The notes beneath the pieces are model-generated. The model worked only from the letters and a program-made list of their open reading frames with translations. It searched no databases and had not been told where the DNA came from. Of a stretch of DNA of 64,000 bases, positions 29,227-38,053 are shown piece after piece. The DNA comes from Calditrichota bacterium (GTDB lineage: Bacteria > Calditrichota > Calditrichia > RBG-13-44-9 > J042): assembly GCA_013150955.1 (NCBI GenBank), contig JAADJD010000010.1, forward strand, positions 1 through 64,000, written 5' to 3'. Position 1 is the stretch's first letter. Every line of letters starts with the position of its first letter. The position numbers were made by a program, and so were the translations under genes.

Positions 29227-29649
29227 TTAACCATGTTCATTTTGCAACAAATACTGCTTGACCTCTTCCAGGGTATGCTGCTCGGCCCACTGGCTGAAAT
29301 ATTCCTTCAGGTCGCGCCAGAAAAAATGCAGGGGGCATGGCTTGTCTTCGCTGCATTCTTCCCATCCAAAAACGCAGGTGGAGGGTTCGGTGTCGTAATT
29401 CACCGCTTTGAGCACATCAGAGAAGTAGATCTCTGACAGTGGACGGGCCAGTACAAAGCCCCCGCCGTGGCCTTTCTGGGAGTTTAGCAGTCCGGCCGCG
29501 ACCAGTCGCCGCATGATTTTTGACAGATAGTGCAGGGGAATCCCCGTTTCCTCGGATAAATCCCGTGCCCGTACCGGTTTATCTGGAGGATTCGCTGCCA
29601 GCAAGGCCATTACCCGTAGCGCATACTCCGCCGTTTGCGTGAGTCTCAT
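29227..29649 (-). CDS. Rrf2-family iron-sulfur transcriptional regulator (NsrR/IscR type)
   Basis: A 140-residue Rrf2 protein. The helix-turn-helix is RARDLSEETGIPLHYLSKIMRRLVAAGLL, and the wing motif KGHGGGFVLARPL is classic for the family. Three cysteines, C92-X6-C99-X5-C105 (TCVFGWEEC, DKPC), sit where NsrR and IscR bind a [2Fe-2S] or [4Fe-4S] cluster. It is divergent from the heme-copper oxidase cluster with a 277-base gap holding a strong promoter and two 20-bp palindromes. The simplest reading is an NO- or redox-sensing repressor of that cluster. NsrR, IscR and RsrR share this fold and cannot be told apart by sequence alone. ATG at 29649, GGGAGG upstream. Confidence 0.9.
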   Translation of the reverse strand: MRLTQTAEYALRVMALLAANPPDKPVRARDLSEETGIPLHYLSKIMRRLVAAGLLNSQKGHGGGFVLARPLSEIYFSDVLKAVNYDTEPSTCVFGWEECSEDKPCPLHFFWRDLKEYFSQWAEQHTLEEVKQYLLQNEHG

Positions 29650-29926: not shown

Positions 29927-31333
29927 ATGGAGCCCTACAAAACCTCCCGGCAGTGGTTGGGCATCGGCATTGGCGCGTTAATGCTGGCCGGTTTTCTTTC
30001 CTTTGTCCTGGTGATTGGAAGGGCTCCGCTGATTCATCATCTCATTACCGATCCCCAATTTGCCCGCCGTTGTCTGGTCATCCACGTCAATCTGGCCTTG
30101 TTTGTGTGGTTATCGGCTGTTCTGGCCAGTTTGTACACGCTGCTTCCCGGATATCGATCGAAACGCGGGGGAACGCTGGAGCCTCCGCATCTGGCCATGA
30201 TGGGAATCGCCCTGTTTATTATTAGCGGAATGTTTCCGGCGGCTGAACCCATCATGTCCAATTATATTCCGGTGCTGGATCATCCACTCTTTTTTATCGG
30301 AATGGGACTGGTTTTGCTGGCTCTGGTGGTTACTTACCTGCAGGCGCATCCATTTCGTGTTCGCGCCATTGTCGATAGAGATCATCCCATTTTACCGGTA
30401 TCCGTGCAACACGGACTGCGGTGGACGGCCATTGCCTTTCTGCTGGCCGTCATGACCCTGATCATTACCTGGTGGCGATTGTCCAATCAACTGGATGCCG
30501 CTTTTTATTACGATTACCTGTTCTGGGGGGCGGGGCATGTCCTGCAATCGGTGAACGTCATGGGCATGGTCAACGTCTGGCTCATTTTATTTTCTCGCCT
30601 GCCCGGTCGTCCCTGGCTGTCGCTTCGCCTGACCAATAGTTTATTTGCCCTGTTGTGGCTGCCGTTGTTGTATGCTCCCTACATTGCCTATCACGCCCCC
30701 AACACCGGGTTTTATTATTCCCAGTTTACCCGCCTGATGCAATTTGGCATTTTCCCCGGTGTGCTGGGGTTTCTTTTCGTCATGGGGTATGCGTATTTTC
30801 GCCGGGTATCGGCAGCGGATCGCCGACTGTTCTGGCAGCAAACCCCGGCGCTGGGCTTTCTGGCCAGCATCACCTTAATTCTTACCGGATTTCTTCTGGG
30901 CGCTTTCATTCGGACGTCGAATACGCTGGTGCCCGCCCACTATCACGCCGCCATCGGTTCCATCACGGTGATCTATATGGTGATGGTTTATCAGCTATTA
31001 CCGTTTTTTGGGTTTCCGGTACTTTCCCGGTTGTTGCAGCGAATGGCCAGCTGGCAGCCGGTGGTTTTCGGGTTTGGGCAGACCATCTTTGCCGTGGGGT
31101 TTGCCATGGCCGGACTCACCCGCAAGGTTTACGGCGCCGAACAGCAAATCCACACCCTGAAAGAATATGTGGGCATGGGGTTGATGGGGCTGGGTGGGCT
31201 GATGGCCATTGCCGGGGGAATTCTATTTATCTGGATTGTTACCACAGCCGTTTCGCCAGCAGTTCCTTTATTCATCATAAAAAAAAGGAGGGCATTATGG
31301 AAGGCAATCAAAAGCATCCCCTTCAGAAGTTGA
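29927..31333 (+). CDS. Divergent heme-copper oxidase subunit I paralogue
   Basis: A 468-residue protein with about 12 membrane helices that aligns by eye with the subunit I encoded downstream. The low-spin heme histidine in CLVIHVNLALFVW and both helix-X heme histidines in VPAHYHAAIGS are kept. The first copper-site His is present in WGAGHVLQSVNV. In helix VII the usual HH pair becomes YH (APYIAYHAPNTG), so one expected copper ligand is tyrosine. The cross-linking Tyr position in helix VI is Ser. It could be a second catalytic subunit with an unusual binuclear site, or a heme-bearing structural subunit. ATG at 29927 is 44 bases after the predicted transcription start. The 3' end overlaps the next small gene. 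Confidence 0.8.
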   Translation: MEPYKTSRQWLGIGIGALMLAGFLSFVLVIGRAPLIHHLITDPQFARRCLVIHVNLALFVWLSAVLASLYTLLPGYRSKRGGTLEPPHLAMMGIALFIISGMFPAAEPIMSNYIPVLDHPLFFIGMGLVLLALVVTYLQAHPFRVRAIVDRDHPILPVSVQHGLRWTAIAFLLAVMTLIITWWRLSNQLDAAFYYDYLFWGAGHVLQSVNVMGMVNVWLILFSRLPGRPWLSLRLTNSLFALLWLPLLYAPYIAYHAPNTGFYYSQFTRLMQFGIFPGVLGFLFVMGYAYFRRVSAADRRLFWQQTPALGFLASITLILTGFLLGAFIRTSNTLVPAHYHAAIGSITVIYMVMVYQLLPFFGFPVLSRLLQRMASWQPVVFGFGQTIFAVGFAMAGLTRKVYGAEQQIHTLKEYVGMGLMGLGGLMAIAGGILFIWIVTTAVSPAVPLFIIKKRRALWKAIKSIPFRS

Positions 31334-31443
31334 TGGACAATCCCTGGTTACTTCTGGCGTTAGGTTTGCTCATCCCCATTTTGTCGTACACCGCATGGGG
31401 GTGGTATCAGATTGTCAACATGGCGAAAGCACTGTTACCATAA
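31297..31443 (+). CDS. 48-residue single-helix membrane peptide, putative oxidase small subunit
   Basis: A small reading frame starting ATG at 31297, preceded by AAAAAAAGGAGGGCATT, and overlapping the end of the previous gene by 37 bases in another frame. It encodes a short basic N-terminus, then one hydrophobic helix (WLLLALGLLIPILSYTAWGWY), then a short tail. Heme-copper oxidases of the B family carry such one-helix subunits (subunit IIa of ba3). Position between two oxidase genes, good ribosome-binding site and clean transmembrane pattern support it; no sequence motif proves the family. Confidence 0.75.
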   Translation: MEGNQKHPLQKLMDNPWLLLALGLLIPILSYTAWGWYQIVNMAKALLP

Positions 31444-31461: not shown

Positions 31462-31986
31462 ATGAGCATTAAAGTACCGGAATCCGATTGGTTTAAGCCC
31501 CCTGCAGGAAGCGAGCGGCTGTGGGTAGGGGTGGCGCTGGTCTGGTGTATGATCATGTTCCTGGCCATGCCCTACTGGCATTTTAAGGGAAAACAAAACG
31601 CGACCGGAGAATCGTATGCGGTGACGCCGGCAGAGTTTATGGAACGGGTCACCCGGTTTGTGGAGACCAACAAGGTGGGAGAAGAAAATGGCATTCCCAT
31701 TGTGGAGCCCTCTCCCGGTGGCGATGCATACCTGGTGGGTCAGATGTGGCGCTGGTATCCCATTCTGAAGTTAAAAGAAGGCCAGACGTATCGCCTGCAC
31801 ATCTCTTCGGTGGATTTGCAGCATGGGTTTTCGGTGTTGCCCATTAACATCAACTTTCAGGCGCTTCCGGGTTACGATCATGTCATTACCCTGACGCCTA
31901 CCAGTAAGGGGGTTTATCAAATCATCTGCAATGAATTTTGTGGCATCGGTCATCATTTAATGACAGGTCGAATCATCGTAGAATAG
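31462..31986 (+). CDS. Heme-copper oxidase subunit II with CuA centre
   Basis: A 174-residue subunit II. One N-terminal transmembrane helix (RLWVGVALVWCMIMFLAMPYW) anchors a periplasmic cupredoxin domain. The CuA ligands are all visible: the His in SSVDLQHGFSVLP and the CX3CX3HX2M-like motif CNEFCGIGHHLM. It receives electrons from a periplasmic donor and passes them to subunit I. The single-helix form matches B-family (ba3) subunit II. AGGAGGACAACT precedes the ATG at 31462. Order CuA subunit, catalytic subunit, SCO recalls the norSY-senC cluster known in Nitrosomonas (from memory). Confidence 0.93.
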   Translation: MSIKVPESDWFKPPAGSERLWVGVALVWCMIMFLAMPYWHFKGKQNATGESYAVTPAEFMERVTRFVETNKVGEENGIPIVEPSPGGDAYLVGQMWRWYPILKLKEGQTYRLHISSVDLQHGFSVLPININFQALPGYDHVITLTPTSKGVYQIICNEFCGIGHHLMTGRIIVE

Positions 31987-31997
31987 GAGAGAATGCC

Positions 31998-33719
31998 ATG
32001 GGTAACTTTTTAGAAGGTCGGTATCGCACCTGTAATACAACCGGGCTGCCGGTATGCCTGGATGCACAGTTTTTCATCCGGGCCCATGCGGTGGCCGCAG
32101 TGGTGTTTTTTCTGATTGGCGCGATTGCGGCTTTGCTGATCGCCCTGACGCGCTGGCAGGCCGTGCATCTGTTGTCTGCCATGTGGTTTTACCGCGTGTT
32201 AACCCTGCATGGCCTGAATATGTTGATTTTCTGGATTATTTCCTTTGAAATTGCCATTCTCTATTTTGCTGGAACCAGTCTGTTAAACACCCGCTTGTTT
32301 TCCCGAAAGGTGGCCTGGGTGGCCTACATTTTGATGGTGGTGGGTGCCCTGATGGTGGACTACATCGTGCTGATCGGAAAGGGCGACGTGTTGATGACTT
32401 CCTACGTGCCTCTGAAGGCGCATCCGCTGTTTTATCTGGGAATCATCCTGTTTGCCGTGGGCACGCTGACGGCGGTGTTCAACTTTTTTGCCACCATCTA
32501 CATTGCCCAGCGGGATAAGACCTACGAAGGATCCATGCCGCTGGTTGCCTTTGGGGCGCTGGCTGCGGCCATCATTGCTGTGCTGACACTGCTGCACGGT
32601 GCCACGGTCATGATCCCCAGCTTTCTGTGGTCGCTGGGATTGATTGAAAACATCGATGCCGGATGGTATCGGCTGGTCTGGTGGGGATTGGGACATCCGT
32701 CGCAGCAGATTAATGTGGCAGCCATGGTGGCGGTCTGGTATTTCCTGGCCACTTTGACCACCGGTGCCAAACCGTTGAACGAGACCGTATGCCGGGTGGC
32801 GTTTGTTTTCTACATTCTGTTCATCAATCTGGCTTCTGCACACCATCTGCTGGTGGATCCAGGCCTGAACGCCTCCTGGAAGATCTGGAACACCTCCTAC
32901 GCCATGTATCTGGCGGTGCTGGCTTCCATGATCCACGGCTTCACCGTGCCAGCATCCATTGAAGTGGCCCAGCGGCTGAAGGGATTTACCCGCGGCATTT
33001 TCAACTGGCTCACGTCCGCACCCTGGAGCGATCCGGGCTTTTCTTCCATGTTCATGTCCATCGTGATTTTCGGATTCATCGGTGGCATTACCGGCGTGAC
33101 CATCGGGACGGAACAGATCAACATCATTGCCCATAATACGCTGCGGGTACCGGGACATTTCCACGCCACGGTCGTGGGGGGTACCACGCTGGCTTTCATG
33201 GGCTTAACCTATTATGTGGTGCCACTGATCTTTCAGCGGGATTTTTATTTTAAGGGACTGGCCCGTATTCAGCCGTACATTTTCGCATCGGGTGTGGTGT
33301 TGTTGTCCATCGGAATGTCCTTTGCCGGTTCCTACGGTGTACCGCGGCGTCACTGGGATGTGAATTTTACCGGTGCACCCTTATCGGCCGGGTTCGATGC
33401 AGCGGCACATTTCATGCTGGGCTTGCTGGGCATTGGCGGAATCCTGGCATTCACCGGGGCGCTGATTTTCATTTTGCTGGTGGTAGCGGCGGTGTTCTTT
33501 GGTAAATCCCTTGCTGGACAACCCTTCAGCGGTTGGCAGCCTGCGGAGAAATTCAAACTGAGCATGGAAATTTTTGCCCGGAAAAAAGACGAAAAATTTG
33601 AAGAAATTGCCCACAAAGTACCTGGCACGGTGGTGCTGGTGTTTGTGTTGCTGGTATCGTTCATGGTGTATTACTTTGCCAACTGGAAAGCCCTGGCCGA
33701 TGTGTGGTACGTGCGTTAA
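31998..33719 (+). CDS. B-family heme-copper subunit I lacking the active-site tyrosine; probable NO reductase
   Basis: A 573-residue catalytic subunit with 12-14 helices. It aligns with Thermus ba3 subunit I: the heme His in TLHGLNMLIFW, copper His in WWGLGHPSQQI, HH in SAHHLLVDPG and heme histidines in VPGHFHATV. The residue four after the first copper-site His, the Tyr that cross-links to it in oxygen reductases, is Gln here (GHPSQQ for GHPIVY). No Tyr sits at the cbb3-type helix VII position either. Loss of both is expected of NO reductase lineages (sNOR/eNOR type), not oxygen reductases. The Rrf2 regulator and CuA subunit support that. The ATG at 31998 has AGGAGAGAATGCC; an upstream in-frame start is rejected. 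Confidence 0.87.
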   Translation: MGNFLEGRYRTCNTTGLPVCLDAQFFIRAHAVAAVVFFLIGAIAALLIALTRWQAVHLLSAMWFYRVLTLHGLNMLIFWIISFEIAILYFAGTSLLNTRLFSRKVAWVAYILMVVGALMVDYIVLIGKGDVLMTSYVPLKAHPLFYLGIILFAVGTLTAVFNFFATIYIAQRDKTYEGSMPLVAFGALAAAIIAVLTLLHGATVMIPSFLWSLGLIENIDAGWYRLVWWGLGHPSQQINVAAMVAVWYFLATLTTGAKPLNETVCRVAFVFYILFINLASAHHLLVDPGLNASWKIWNTSYAMYLAVLASMIHGFTVPASIEVAQRLKGFTRGIFNWLTSAPWSDPGFSSMFMSIVIFGFIGGITGVTIGTEQINIIAHNTLRVPGHFHATVVGGTTLAFMGLTYYVVPLIFQRDFYFKGLARIQPYIFASGVVLLSIGMSFAGSYGVPRRHWDVNFTGAPLSAGFDAAAHFMLGLLGIGGILAFTGALIFILLVVAAVFFGKSLAGQPFSGWQPAEKFKLSMEIFARKKDEKFEEIAHKVPGTVVLVFVLLVSFMVYYFANWKALADVWYVR

Positions 33720-33786
33720 TCGACAGTCGGGTTTTCAGAAGATAAAAAGGATGGATTCCGATGATTCCCTGGAAGGGACTCCCACA

Positions 33787-33831
33787 GAACTCCGCCAGAC
33801 CGGTTCCATGCCGGGGGCGGAGTTCTTTTTT
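33787..33831 (+). terminator. Rho-independent terminator within the respiratory cluster
   Basis: A perfect 10-bp stem (GAACTCCGCC at 33787-33796, GGCGGAGTTC at 33816-33825) is followed by six T residues. It separates the oxidase genes from the SCO and cytochrome b genes, so these may be two transcripts or be linked by partial read-through. The 252-base gap holds no other convincing gene. Confidence 0.85.
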
Positions 33832-33971
33832 GGGTTGGATTGTGCAGCGACCCTGTTCTGGTCAGGGCAGGGATGGGAATGCTCTCGTTTCATTCCAGGC
33901 GAAACGGCCTGGAAGGACGGTCTGGATGAATTTAGATAATCATTGAATCAGGTGACAGGTGAGGGGTAGCC

Positions 33972-34922
33972 ATGGGATTTTATAACCAGTTTCAGAAATT
34001 CATTATTAGCTGGCGTTTTGCGGTGTTAATGCTCTCGGTGCTTTTCTTCTTCACGCTTCTGATGATCCTGGTCATTTTGCTACCGACGGAATCCGGTGCG
34101 CTGGCGGCGTTTGCAGAGGACTTTAAAATCTGGTGTTTCCGCTACGATCCCGCGACCGGCACCATGGAATGGTCCTACGTGGTCATGTTCATGTTGCAGC
34201 CATTGTTGATTGGAACGGTCATTCTGGCGGTCTGGTGGAATCAGTTGCGCCAGGTGTTTCAGATGAATCGCCAGGGATTGTTTCCCTATATTGGGGGCGG
34301 TTTTATGGTGGTTCTGGTAGCGGCGGTGATTTTTGCGGTGGCGTTTCCGGTGGACAGTCAGGCCAGTCAGGAAGAGTTGCCCTTTCCTGCGGAACAGCTG
34401 CGAACGGAGTTTCGGGCACCCGATTTCACGCTAACGGATCATCGTGGCCAGACCATTCGACTTTCCGAACTGCGCGGCAAGGTGGTGTTGGTGACGGCGG
34501 TATATGCCAGTTGTGGACACACCTGCCCGCTGATCTTGCAGCAGGCCAAGCGGGTCTTTGCCCGGTTAACCGAAGCGGAAAAACAGCAACTGAAGGTGCT
34601 GGTGATTTCGCTGGATCCCGAAAACGATTCGCCAGAAATATTGCAGATGCTGGCTACCAATCAACAACTGGATGCACCGTACATCCATTTCCTTACCGGA
34701 GATCCAGAGCCGGTGAATCGGGCGCTGGACAACTATAGCATTTCCCGGCAGAAGGATCCCGAAACCGGGGTGATCAGTCATGCCAATTTGTTTATATTGG
34801 TGGACAAAGCCGGGCGGGTGGCCTATCGGTTTTCCCTGGGTCAGCAACAGGAAAACTGGTTGACCACCGCCCTGAAATTGCTGATTCATGAACCGGTAAA
34901 CACATCGACGTCAACGCTTTAA
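33972..34922 (+). CDS. SCO1/SenC-family protein with N-terminal membrane domain
   Basis: A 316-residue protein. Residues 1-130 hold three hydrophobic helices (FAVLMLSVLFFFTLLMILVILL, VVMFMLQPLLIGTVILAVWW, GGGFMVVLVAAVIFAVAF). A SCO thioredoxin-fold domain follows (about 145-310): FRAPDFTLTDHRGQTIRLSELRGKVVLVTAVYASCGHTCPL. The copper ligands are the CX3C pair (CGHTC, near residue 181) and the His in VISHANLF near 269. SCO proteins load copper into the CuA site of subunit II. Ordinary SCO has a single anchor, so the three-helix extension is unusual and might contact the oxidase or the cytochrome b encoded next. ATG at 33972 has GAGGGGTAGCC. Confidence 0.9.
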   Translation: MGFYNQFQKFIISWRFAVLMLSVLFFFTLLMILVILLPTESGALAAFAEDFKIWCFRYDPATGTMEWSYVVMFMLQPLLIGTVILAVWWNQLRQVFQMNRQGLFPYIGGGFMVVLVAAVIFAVAFPVDSQASQEELPFPAEQLRTEFRAPDFTLTDHRGQTIRLSELRGKVVLVTAVYASCGHTCPLILQQAKRVFARLTEAEKQQLKVLVISLDPENDSPEILQMLATNQQLDAPYIHFLTGDPEPVNRALDNYSISRQKDPETGVISHANLFILVDKAGRVAYRFSLGQQQENWLTTALKLLIHEPVNTSTSTL

Positions 34923-34935
34923 ACAGGAAGGCCCA

Positions 34936-37038
34936 ATGGAAACTCCAACGCTGTCGCGTGCGAAAAGGCGTGCCCCCGTTCAGTTACCGTTTCGGTCGGT
35001 TGGTGATGCGCGCTCGCATCCGCAGCTGGTTGGCGAACGGTTACTGCGCCAATGGAATACCCTGTTTATTCGATTGAATCAGTGGGTTAAGACGGCACTG
35101 CCCGATACGTTAAACCCCTTTGCCCAGATGGGGGCGGTGGCAAACACCACGTTTGTGATCGCTCTGATTTCCGGCATTCTGCTTCTGTTCTGGTATAGTC
35201 CCAGCATTCATTACGCATACGACTCGCTGGAGTCCATGCGCACCTCTTCCTTTCTGGGACAGTTGATGCGCTCCCTGCACCGTTACAGTTCCGATGCCTG
35301 CATCCTGTTCATGGTATTACATGCCTTTCAGGTGCTTTTTGCCGGGAAGTTTAGTGGGCCGCGCTGGCTGGCCTGGGTTTCGGGCGTGGTGCTGGCAGGA
35401 CTGCTCTGGGTGGATGGCTGGCTGGGGTACTGGCTGGTCTGGGATCAGCGTGCCCAGCTGGTGGCACTGGGTTCCGCCCGGATGCTGGATGTGCTGCCCT
35501 TTTTTGCCGATCCTCTTTCCCGATCTTTTTTAACCAATGAAAGTGTCAACTCCCTGCTCTTCTTCCTGGTCTTTTTTATGCACATGCTGATTCCTCTGGG
35601 CATCGGGATTGCTCTGTGGATTCACATCATGCGATTAAACCGTTCGGTATTTTTTACCCGGGCGAAATTAACCTGGGCCATTTTGATTTCGCTAACAATC
35701 TTATCGGTGATTTATCCCGCCACTTCGGCACCCCGCGCCGATATGCTCACCGTTCCCGACAAACTGACCATTGATTGGTTCTACCTGTTTCCGCTCTTTC
35801 TCACCGATCGGCTGGAGGGCGGCATGTTGTGGATGATAACGTTGGTGCTCACCGTTCTGGTTACCGCCGTGCCATGGTTGCTGCAAAGGCGGAAATCCCC
35901 GGTGGCCAGGGTGCTGGAAAGCCGGTGCAATGGATGCACGCAGTGCTACCAGGATTGCCCCTACAATGCCATTACCATGATGCCCCGTGCCGATCGGGAA
36001 GAACCGTACGCGTCGGTGGATCCTGCCCGCTGTGTGGGGTGCGGGATTTGCGTGGGCTCCTGCGATCCCGCAGGTGTGACCTATCCGTTACTGGAACCGC
36101 TGGATATCCGGCAGTGGATCAATCAGGTTCTGGAAGCGTCTTCGCCGGGGCAGACCCCGCCTTATCTGGCCTTTATTTGTGCCGAATCCGCCGGTGCCGA
36201 TCTGCAATTGAATGCAGCCGGAGAAAGTCCCGAATTACCCGGATATCGGATATTGCCGGTTCCCTGTGCCGGGTGGGTACATCCGTTGCTGATCGAACGC
36301 GCGGTACGCAAGGGTGCTGCCGGAGTGCTGATCGTCAGTTGCGATCTGGATCCTTATTGTCGCAAGGGAGTGGAGTGGACAGCCGAACGACTGGATGGAG
36401 AACGCAAGCCCGCCCTGCGAAAAGAAAAAGTAGGGGACACACCGGTGTACCATCTGCGTGTGGATCGCACCGAAAAGGATGCGTTTTTAAAAGCCGCACG
36501 GCAGTTCCAGCAGGAGGGCCGCATACCACAGCGATCTCCACGTAGCCGATTCTATCGCTGGACGGTGGCGGCGGTACTGGTGTTGGGACTGAGCCTGGCC
36601 ACGGTTGTTCCCAGCGATGCCTGGTATCCCACCGTTGTACCGGAACATCCGGAGGTGGTGGTGTCCTTCAAACATCCCGGTCAGCTGGTGGAGCAATCGG
36701 CGGCCACCCAGAAAAGCAATGACGAATTGTTACCCCACATGCGGGGTGCGGCATCCATCCAGCGGGTTCGGGTGCCTGTTAGAATGCGAATTTTTGTGGA
36801 TGGGAAGGAAGTGCTGAACAAATCCTATCGTCCCGGTGGCCTGTTTAATGATGGCACCAGCCTGGCCATTGAAAAGCTACCCATTCCCGAAGGGCGTCAT
36901 CGGGTGCGCATTGAAATTGGGGATAGCCCCGATCCCGACGAATGGAACTATGTGGATGAACGGGAAGTGGTGTTGGACAGCAATACCCGGCGCCATGTGG
37001 TGATGTTCGATAGGGTTAGTGGATTCAGGTGGTATTAA
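34936..37038 (+). CDS. Cytochrome b - 2[4Fe-4S] ferredoxin - MvhD fusion protein
   Basis: A 700-residue fusion. Residues about 50-325 form a bc1-type cytochrome b. Both heme pairs are HX13H (LHRYSSDACILFMVLH; FMHMLIPLGIGIALWIH). The Qo-site PEWY counterpart is IDWFY. Residues about 330-385 form a dicluster ferredoxin (CNGCTQCYQDCP, CVGCGICVGSCDP). Residues about 405-520 match the MvhD/FlpD hydrogenase delta domain (FICAESAGADLQ, PVPCAGWVHPLLIERAVRKGAAGVLIVSCD). A further helix (VAAVLVLGLSLATVV) and a beta-rich C-terminal domain of about 140 residues follow. It would join a quinone-reactive cytochrome b to a cytosolic electron-entry site. It sits 13 bases after the SCO gene. Confidence 0.88.
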   Translation: METPTLSRAKRRAPVQLPFRSVGDARSHPQLVGERLLRQWNTLFIRLNQWVKTALPDTLNPFAQMGAVANTTFVIALISGILLLFWYSPSIHYAYDSLESMRTSSFLGQLMRSLHRYSSDACILFMVLHAFQVLFAGKFSGPRWLAWVSGVVLAGLLWVDGWLGYWLVWDQRAQLVALGSARMLDVLPFFADPLSRSFLTNESVNSLLFFLVFFMHMLIPLGIGIALWIHIMRLNRSVFFTRAKLTWAILISLTILSVIYPATSAPRADMLTVPDKLTIDWFYLFPLFLTDRLEGGMLWMITLVLTVLVTAVPWLLQRRKSPVARVLESRCNGCTQCYQDCPYNAITMMPRADREEPYASVDPARCVGCGICVGSCDPAGVTYPLLEPLDIRQWINQVLEASSPGQTPPYLAFICAESAGADLQLNAAGESPELPGYRILPVPCAGWVHPLLIERAVRKGAAGVLIVSCDLDPYCRKGVEWTAERLDGERKPALRKEKVGDTPVYHLRVDRTEKDAFLKAARQFQQEGRIPQRSPRSRFYRWTVAAVLVLGLSLATVVPSDAWYPTVVPEHPEVVVSFKHPGQLVEQSAATQKSNDELLPHMRGAASIQRVRVPVRMRIFVDGKEVLNKSYRPGGLFNDGTSLAIEKLPIPEGRHRVRIEIGDSPDPDEWNYVDEREVVLDSNTRRHVVMFDRVSGFRWY

Positions 37039-37433: not shown

Positions 37434-37832
37434 CTAACCAAGAGGAAACATTTTTAAATTTTGAATTCTGGAGAAATGTTGAGTATTTAAGGTGGCCAAT
37501 GGTACGTCCAGTGTTATTGAGGTGGCAGCAATAAGTATATCCAGTACATTGATAAGCTTATTTTGACGCTTCAAATCACGATAAATTTCGGCGGCACATT
37601 CACTTTCCTGCATGCTAAATTCCACAATTAAAAATAAACTTAATAATTGCTTCATATCTCTTGACAGTTGTGGAGATGTTGCGCCGCAAAGAAGCTCGTA
37701 ATGGGTGATAATGGAAATGAACAAATGATCGCAGGCGTCAAATAAAGCATAGAGGTGGGTGCGGGATTTGTTTTGTTTCCTGAAGAAATCGATGATAATG
37801 GATGAATCGATTAATACTCCTCTGGCTCCCAA
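37434..37832 (-). CDS. vapC: VapC-like PIN-domain ribonuclease toxin
   Basis: A 132-residue PIN domain. Conserved acidic residues are in the N-terminal VLIDSSIIIDFF, the mid HYELLCGA, and NVLDILIAATSI, with the C-terminal LATLNTQHF strand as in VapC. These chelate the metal used to cut RNA. The start is TTG at 37832, inside the end of the antitoxin frame. The AAAAAGGGG at spacing 7 upstream supports it. No ATG is available near the domain start. The overlap ensures translational coupling with the antitoxin upstream. The base composition is AT-richer than most neighbours, as is common for transferred toxin pairs. Confidence 0.87.
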   Translation of the reverse strand: MGARGVLIDSSIIIDFFRKQNKSRTHLYALFDACDHLFISIITHYELLCGATSPQLSRDMKQLLSLFLIVEFSMQESECAAEIYRDLKRQNKLINVLDILIAATSITLDVPLATLNTQHFSRIQNLKMFPLG

Positions 37833-38053
37833 TGTGCCAGCCCCTTTTTGACCTGTTTAATTTCCTTTAAATCTTCATCACAATACGTTCCCAGACTATT
37901 CAAGATCCTTTTCCACTGCTTTCTTCTGGATTGATAACCTGGCATCAATATAATAATGTCGAATACCTGACCTTCCTTTAACGGGGGGATTTTGTCGATA
38001 ATTTTTAACCGTCCTTGACTGTCCACAGTTGCTTTTGTTTGTAACCACGCCAT
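37811..38053 (-). CDS. Antitoxin partner of the VapC-like toxin
   Basis: An 80-residue protein. The N-terminal half (KATVDSQGRLKIIDKIPPLKEGQVFDIIIL) looks like a small DNA-binding beta fold of AbrB/DUF-type antitoxins. The C-terminal half (KRILNSLGTYCDEDLKEIKQVKKGLAHWE) is charged and helical, as needed to wrap the toxin. The frame overlaps the toxin start by 22 bases. Function is inferred mainly from its place next to the PIN-domain gene. The ATG at 38053 lacks a strong ribosome-binding site. Confidence 0.75.
   Translation of the reverse strand: MAWLQTKATVDSQGRLKIIDKIPPLKEGQVFDIIILMPGYQSRRKQWKRILNSLGTYCDEDLKEIKQVKKGLAHWEPEEY

What the first reader, a model, noticed from the sequence alone, without database searches (positions are those of the whole stretch)
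31998..33719. B-family heme-copper subunit I with tyrosine replaced by glutamine
The protein matches ba3-type oxidases at every heme and copper ligand but has GHPSQQ instead of GHPxxY. The helix-VII tyrosine of cbb3 is also missing. The cross-linked tyrosine is required for O2 chemistry, so this is most probably an NO reductase of the sNOR/eNOR kind. The CuA subunit and SCO gene order echo norSY-senC.
Basis: partly seen in the sequence, partly recalled or inferred. Interest (0 to 1): 0.8.

Follow-up and report, generated by a model that had tools for sequence, protein, structure and literature searches.

The report
A known-type nitric oxide reductase (eNOR)
This gene looks like an oxygen-respiring enzyme, but the tyrosine needed for oxygen chemistry is a glutamine, which marks it as eNOR, an already described family of respiratory enzymes that turn toxic nitric oxide into nitrous oxide; the less ordinary part is the neighbouring gene, a copper-less copy of the same fold whose role is unknown.

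Summary
The 573-aa protein at 31998-33719 has every heme, CuB and propionate residue of a B-family heme-copper subunit I, but GHPSQQ replaces GHPxxY, and the helix-VII tyrosine of cbb3 is absent too. It is eNOR, a described NO reductase family (PMC8756737, PMC11388526). Gln at this site is the published eNOR diagnostic. 91 of 91 relatives from about 20 phyla carry it, 16 of 16 B-family oxidases have Tyr, and the Gln sequences form one clade that includes the probable Rhodothermus marinus eNOR. A CuA subunit and a 48-aa membrane subunit lie upstream, SCO and cytochrome b-ferredoxin genes downstream. The genome has separate aa3 and cbb3 oxidases, no cNOR or qNOR, and a NosZ. Less expected is the gene at 29927-31333: a complete heme-copper subunit-I fold that keeps all heme-side histidines but has lost both helix-VII CuB histidines (64 of 64 homologs). 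It travels with eNOR operons and, in Gammaproteobacteria and Aquificota, with heme A/O synthase, SCO and SURF1 genes. I found no description of it; a biogenesis or accessory-heme role is likely but unproven.

The parts
29227..29649 (-). Rrf2-superfamily regulator, divergent from the operon
   Evidence: Pfam Rrf2 1.7e-31; TIGR00738 above cut-off, NsrR and IscR models far below cut-off; an Rrf2 gene lies in 31/80 related loci
29927..31333 (+). P2: heme-copper subunit-I paralog without CuB ligands, 468 aa
   Evidence: AlphaFold model pLDDT 90; PDB heme-copper subunits I at Z 29-31; H53, H204, H338, H340, R399, K400 in 64/64 homologs, helix-VII HH lost in 64/64; dN/dS 0.14
31297..31443 (+). 48-aa single-helix membrane subunit, overlapping the end of P2
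   Evidence: homolog at the same place in 77/80 eNOR loci and in the probable R. marinus locus
31462..31986 (+). eNOR subunit II with CuA site, 174 aa
   Evidence: COX2 1.4e-7; CNEFCGIGHHLM; present in 79/80 loci
31998..33719 (+). eNOR catalytic subunit I, 573 aa (H233, Q236, Q237)
33972..34922 (+). SCO family protein with an N-terminal membrane part; CuA maturation
   Evidence: SCO1-SenC 1.1e-24; present in 67/80 loci
34936..37038 (+). cytochrome b N-terminal domain + 2x[4Fe-4S] + FlpD domain, 700 aa; likely quinol/electron input
   Evidence: PF00033 2.8e-23, Fer4_7, FlpD; homolog in 70/80 eNOR loci

Best explanation
The gene encodes the catalytic subunit of an eNOR-family nitric oxide reductase, in an operon with its CuA subunit, a small membrane subunit, an SCO copper chaperone and a cytochrome b-ferredoxin protein. 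Electrons are expected to pass from CuA to the low-spin heme b (H71/H389) and on to the high-spin heme (H387)-CuB (H233/H282/H283) site, where 2 NO are reduced to N2O. Without the cross-linked tyrosine the site lacks the extra electron and proton donor needed to split O2, which is the superfamily rationale for NO rather than O2 reduction. Shown here: ligand set, Gln diagnostic, clade, operon. Inferred: electron path, substrate, physiology. The cell probably uses it to respire or detoxify NO, with N2O passed to the genome's own NosZ.
For: Gln is the published eNOR marker and the subunit II gene lies directly upstream. 91/91 relatives keep Q236/Q237, while 16/16 B-family oxidases have Tyr. The Gln clade is one side of a branch (SH-aLRT 99) that holds close relatives of the probable R. 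marinus sequence, itself 45% identical to this protein. That genome was identified from its chromosome length, 3,261,604 bp = 3,386,737 minus a 125-kb plasmid. PMC11388526 says eNOR is biochemically characterised and B-family derived. A conserved operon core is found in 80 loci. The own genome has separate aa3 and cbb3 oxidases and no other COX1-family gene, so no cNOR/qNOR, and a NosZ at 882 bits. The Thermus plasmid relative lies beside Rrf2, DUF542 and hemerythrin genes; DUF542 and hemerythrin are typical of NO stress from general knowledge.
Against: No activity was measured. The primary eNOR paper (Murali 2024) was not readable here. NirK and NrfA were below cut-off and the one NirS-domain hit is weak (28 bits), so the source of NO in this organism is unknown. 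eNOR has its own invariant tyrosines (Y272, Y301, Y304) whose distance from the binuclear site I could not measure.
Confidence: 0.92

Rival explanations
1. It is an unusual ba3-type oxygen reductase in which Gln, or another eNOR-specific tyrosine (Y301/Y304 on helix VIII, or Y272 on helix VII), replaces the cross-linked tyrosine.
For: All heme, CuB and CuA ligands of a B-family oxidase are kept; Y272, Y301 and Y304 are eNOR-specific and conserved.
Against: Separate clade from oxygen reductases; the family includes a biochemically characterised NO reductase; the genome already has aa3 and cbb3 oxidases.
Confidence: 0.04
2. It is one of the other B-family-derived NORs (sNOR, gNOR, bNOR, nNOR) rather than eNOR.
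For: sNOR also has CuA and SenC neighbours; no reference sequences of these families could be put in the tree.
Against: sNOR and bNOR have Asn and gNOR has Asp at this site; here Gln is invariant in 91/91.
Confidence: 0.03
3. It is a relict protein with no catalytic role, since a CuB-less paralog sits beside it.
For: A degenerate paralog exists next door.
Against: Subunit I is among the most constrained genes of the operon (dN/dS 0.022) and keeps all metal ligands.
Confidence: 0.01

Closest known systems
eNOR, B-family-derived NO reductase (Hemp and Gennis 2008; PMC8756737; Murali 2024 as cited in PMC11388526)
   Same: Gln for Tyr, all metal ligands, CuA subunit directly upstream, 48-52-aa small subunit, same clade
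   Different: 45% identical to the probable R. marinus enzyme; this operon adds the CuB-less paralog P2, SCO and a cytochrome b-ferredoxin-FlpD protein that were not found at the R. marinus locus
sNOR (norSY-senC)
   Same: B-family origin, CuA subunit, SCO/SenC nearby
   Different: Asn instead of Gln at the active site (Table A4 of PMC8756737)
ba3-type B-family oxygen reductase (1xme, 7deg)
   Same: fold and all heme/copper ligands
   Different: Tyr to Gln; T312 of the K channel is H313 in all eNORs; about 26-34% identity
Known cytochrome oxidase assembly proteins (Sco, CtaK, PCuAC, Cox11/CtaG, CtaA, CtaB, Surf1, CtaM; listed in PMC9145763)
   Same: P2 homologs lie among CtaA, CyoE, SCO and SURF1 genes in Gammaproteobacteria and Aquificota
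   Different: none of the listed factors is a subunit-I paralog

Membership tests
eNOR | Gln in place of the cross-linked active-site Tyr | tested here: met
   Q237; 91/91 relatives Gln, 16/16 oxidases Tyr
eNOR | heme b, high-spin heme and CuB ligands intact | tested here: met
   H71, H233, H282, H283, H387, H389
eNOR | CuA subunit II encoded directly upstream | tested here: met
   31462-31986; CuA gene in 79/80 related loci
eNOR | same clade as the biochemically characterised enzyme | tested here: met
eNOR | reduces NO to N2O | not testable with these tools
   needs purified complex or deletion mutant
sNOR | Asn at the active-site position | tested here: not met
   Gln; residue table in PMC8756737
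gNOR | Asp at the active-site position | tested here: not met
   Gln
bNOR (CuANOR) | Asn at the active-site position | tested here: not met
   Gln
nNOR | diagnostic residues and clade | not tested
   no reference sequence or residue table was available
ba3-type oxygen reductase | helix-VI Tyr cross-linked to a CuB histidine | tested here: not met
   GHPSQQ
cbb3-type oxygen reductase | helix-VII Tyr six residues before the HH pair | tested here: not met
   Ile/Leu in 91/91
cNOR/qNOR | active-site Glu (Table A4 of PMC8756737) | tested here: not met
   Gln at the site; closest solved relatives are ba3-type proteins

The most novel reading that the evidence does not exclude
The upstream gene 29927-31333 (P2) belongs to a widespread, undescribed family of CuB-less heme-copper subunit-I paralogs. 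It is related to eNOR, kept the heme sites and lost copper, and works as a heme-delivery or assembly partner (or accessory diheme subunit) of eNORs and aa3 oxidases, sitting next to heme O/A synthases, SCO and SURF1 in several phyla.
Probability: 0.4. Interest if true: 0.65.

Novelty: new member of a known kind. Interest (0 to 1): 0.42.

Why it matters
It adds a well-supported eNOR to a little-studied phylum. It also shows that proteins like this, annotated as cytochrome c oxidase subunit I (the plasmid relatives are labelled cbb3-type), are probably NO reductases that standard NOR surveys miss, which bears on N2O budgets. The operon partner P2 would matter more if confirmed: a respiratory enzyme fold stripped of its copper and retained across several phyla beside heme-synthesis genes would be a new type of oxidase/NOR biogenesis or accessory factor.

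Tried and rejected
Oxygen reductase: rejected on residues, tree and the presence of two other oxidases. C-family-like tyrosine on helix VII: absent. sNOR, gNOR, bNOR: rejected on the diagnostic residue only; I searched Aquificota and Gammaproteobacteria for gNOR/sNOR references, but the other B-family subunits I that I read had Tyr, so none could be added to the tree. P2 as an eNOR-only subunit: weakened by solo copies and cox/CyoE-linked copies and by its absence from the R. marinus locus and from some close eNOR operons (L027, L049, L053, L056). P2 in the literature: searches on CuB-less homologs and on assembly factors found nothing. The intergenic ORF 33751-33939 is poorly conserved. Murali 2024 (PNAS) was not held.

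Full report
1. Observation. The reading frame 31998-33719 (+) gives a 573-aa protein with one Pfam match, COX1, E 5e-67. Its closest solved relatives are B-family oxidases, 7deg and Thermus ba3 1xme. Aligned with 106 relatives it keeps H71, H233, H282, H283, H387, H389, R450 and R451, while the residue four after H233 is Gln. The helix-VII position that carries the cbb3 tyrosine is Ile/Leu in all 91 Gln sequences.

2. Family. A tblastn search of named plasmids found the nearest named relatives, at 48-53%, in Defluviimonas, Thermomicrobium roseum and Thermus thermophilus, all GHxxQQ; Tyr-bearing oxidases come at 25-34%. A genome-contig scan returned 80 loci at 55-95% identity from about twenty phyla, and every one has Gln-Gln. 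In an IQ-TREE tree the Gln sequences form one side of a branch (SH-aLRT 99) apart from the oxidases. PMC8756737 defines eNOR by exactly this Gln, describes a cupredoxin subunit II directly upstream, and lists Asn for sNOR and bNOR, Asp for gNOR and Glu for cNOR/qNOR. [quoted passage not shown] One genome of the Rhodothermia search has a chromosome of 3,261,604 bp; the published R. marinus genome is 3,386,737 bp with a 125-kb plasmid, so this is very probably R. marinus. Its protein is 45% identical, has GHGSQQ, and follows a small-subunit gene and a CuA gene in the same order. Membership in eNOR therefore rests on tested features; NO turnover was not testable.

3. Setting. The operon reads P2, 48-aa subunit, CuA subunit II, subunit I, SCO, cytochrome b-[4Fe-4S]-FlpD protein, with a divergent Rrf2 regulator. 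Across 80 loci CuA is found in 79, the small subunit in 77, cytochrome b in 70, SCO in 67, P2 in 42, and CyoE and Rrf2 in 31 each. The own genome (4.07 Mb, 99.7% complete) has three COX1-family genes: this one, an aa3-type and a cbb3-type. It has a Sec-dependent NosZ at 882 bits. NirK and NrfA are below cut-off, and the one NirS-domain hit is a weak 28-bit match. In its phylum only 4 of 40 sampled genomes carry the gene, while relatives at 70-77% lie in other phyla, which suggests lateral transfer. The NO source is not known, so detoxification or use of external NO/N2O is as likely as full denitrification.

4. Mechanism. By superfamily chemistry electrons enter at CuA, pass to the low-spin heme and reach the high-spin heme-CuB centre. 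The missing Tyr removes the extra electron/proton donor used in O-O cleavage. eNOR-wide signatures near the site are Q236, Q237, N239 and H313, the last at the K-channel position T312 of ba3.

5. The neighbour P2. The gene 29927-31333 has no Pfam or NCBIfam match of its own, but 18 of 25 homologs match COX1 (best E 3.5e-18). The family profile finds ba3 at E 1e-13. The AlphaFold model (pLDDT 90) aligns to heme-copper subunits I over about 415 residues at Z 29-31. In 64 of 64 homologs the four heme-side histidines and the RK propionate pair are kept and both helix-VII CuB histidines are gone; 61 of 64 keep the eNOR-type Gln three after H204. dN/dS is 0.14, so it is functional but evolves faster than subunit I at 0.022. 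It forms its own clade beside eNOR. In Verrucomicrobiota all 8 genomes with P2 have an eNOR-scoring gene about 1 kb away; in Rhodothermia 9 of 11 do. It also stands outside eNOR operons: next to CtaA-CyoE in Aquificota, and among SCO, CtaA, CyoE and SURF1-like genes or beside coxA in Gammaproteobacteria (CtaA and SURF1 named from their sequences). In Nitrospirota and Rokubacteria the order is eNOR-P2-CyoE. A biogenesis role (heme o/a handling) fits this best; an accessory diheme subunit or an NO sensor is not excluded. A 2022 review of bacterial oxidase assembly proteins lists no such factor (PMC9145763), and other searches found nothing. Because the main eNOR paper could not be read, I do not claim that P2 is new, only that I found no description. 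Genome-wide absences are soft, because the first look scores only a few candidates per genome in the larger searches.

6. Verdict. The finding itself is an ordinary but correctly spotted member of a known family. The P2 partner is the part worth following.

Noticed in passing
window 29927-31333: CuB-less heme-copper subunit-I paralog (P2), conserved beside eNOR operons and, in other phyla, beside heme O/A synthase, SCO and SURF1 genes; function unknown.
   Followed up: yes
L018:14983-16668 (Thermus thermophilus plasmid), L098:10007-11671 (Aquificota): These eNOR subunits have GHFK on helix X: the histidine that should ligate the low-spin heme is lysine.
   Followed up: no
window 34936-37038: Fusion of cytochrome b N-terminal domain, two [4Fe-4S] clusters and an FlpD domain, conserved in 70/80 eNOR loci; possible electron input that bypasses a Rieske protein.
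   Followed up: partly
G067:C7:146431-147747 (L161:8917-10239): A second P2-family gene in an Aquificota genome (next to CtaA-CyoE); the genome search counted one TAG in the match, but a 440-aa frame reads through in the fetched locus.
   Followed up: no
own genome G000:C61:46748-48574: NosZ well above cut-off, while NirK and NrfA are below cut-off and the NirS-domain hit is weak: possible N2O-terminating partial denitrifier.
   Followed up: partly
window 37434-38053 (-): PIN-domain-like toxin with a small upstream gene, probably a VapBC-type pair, judged from sequence only.
   Followed up: no
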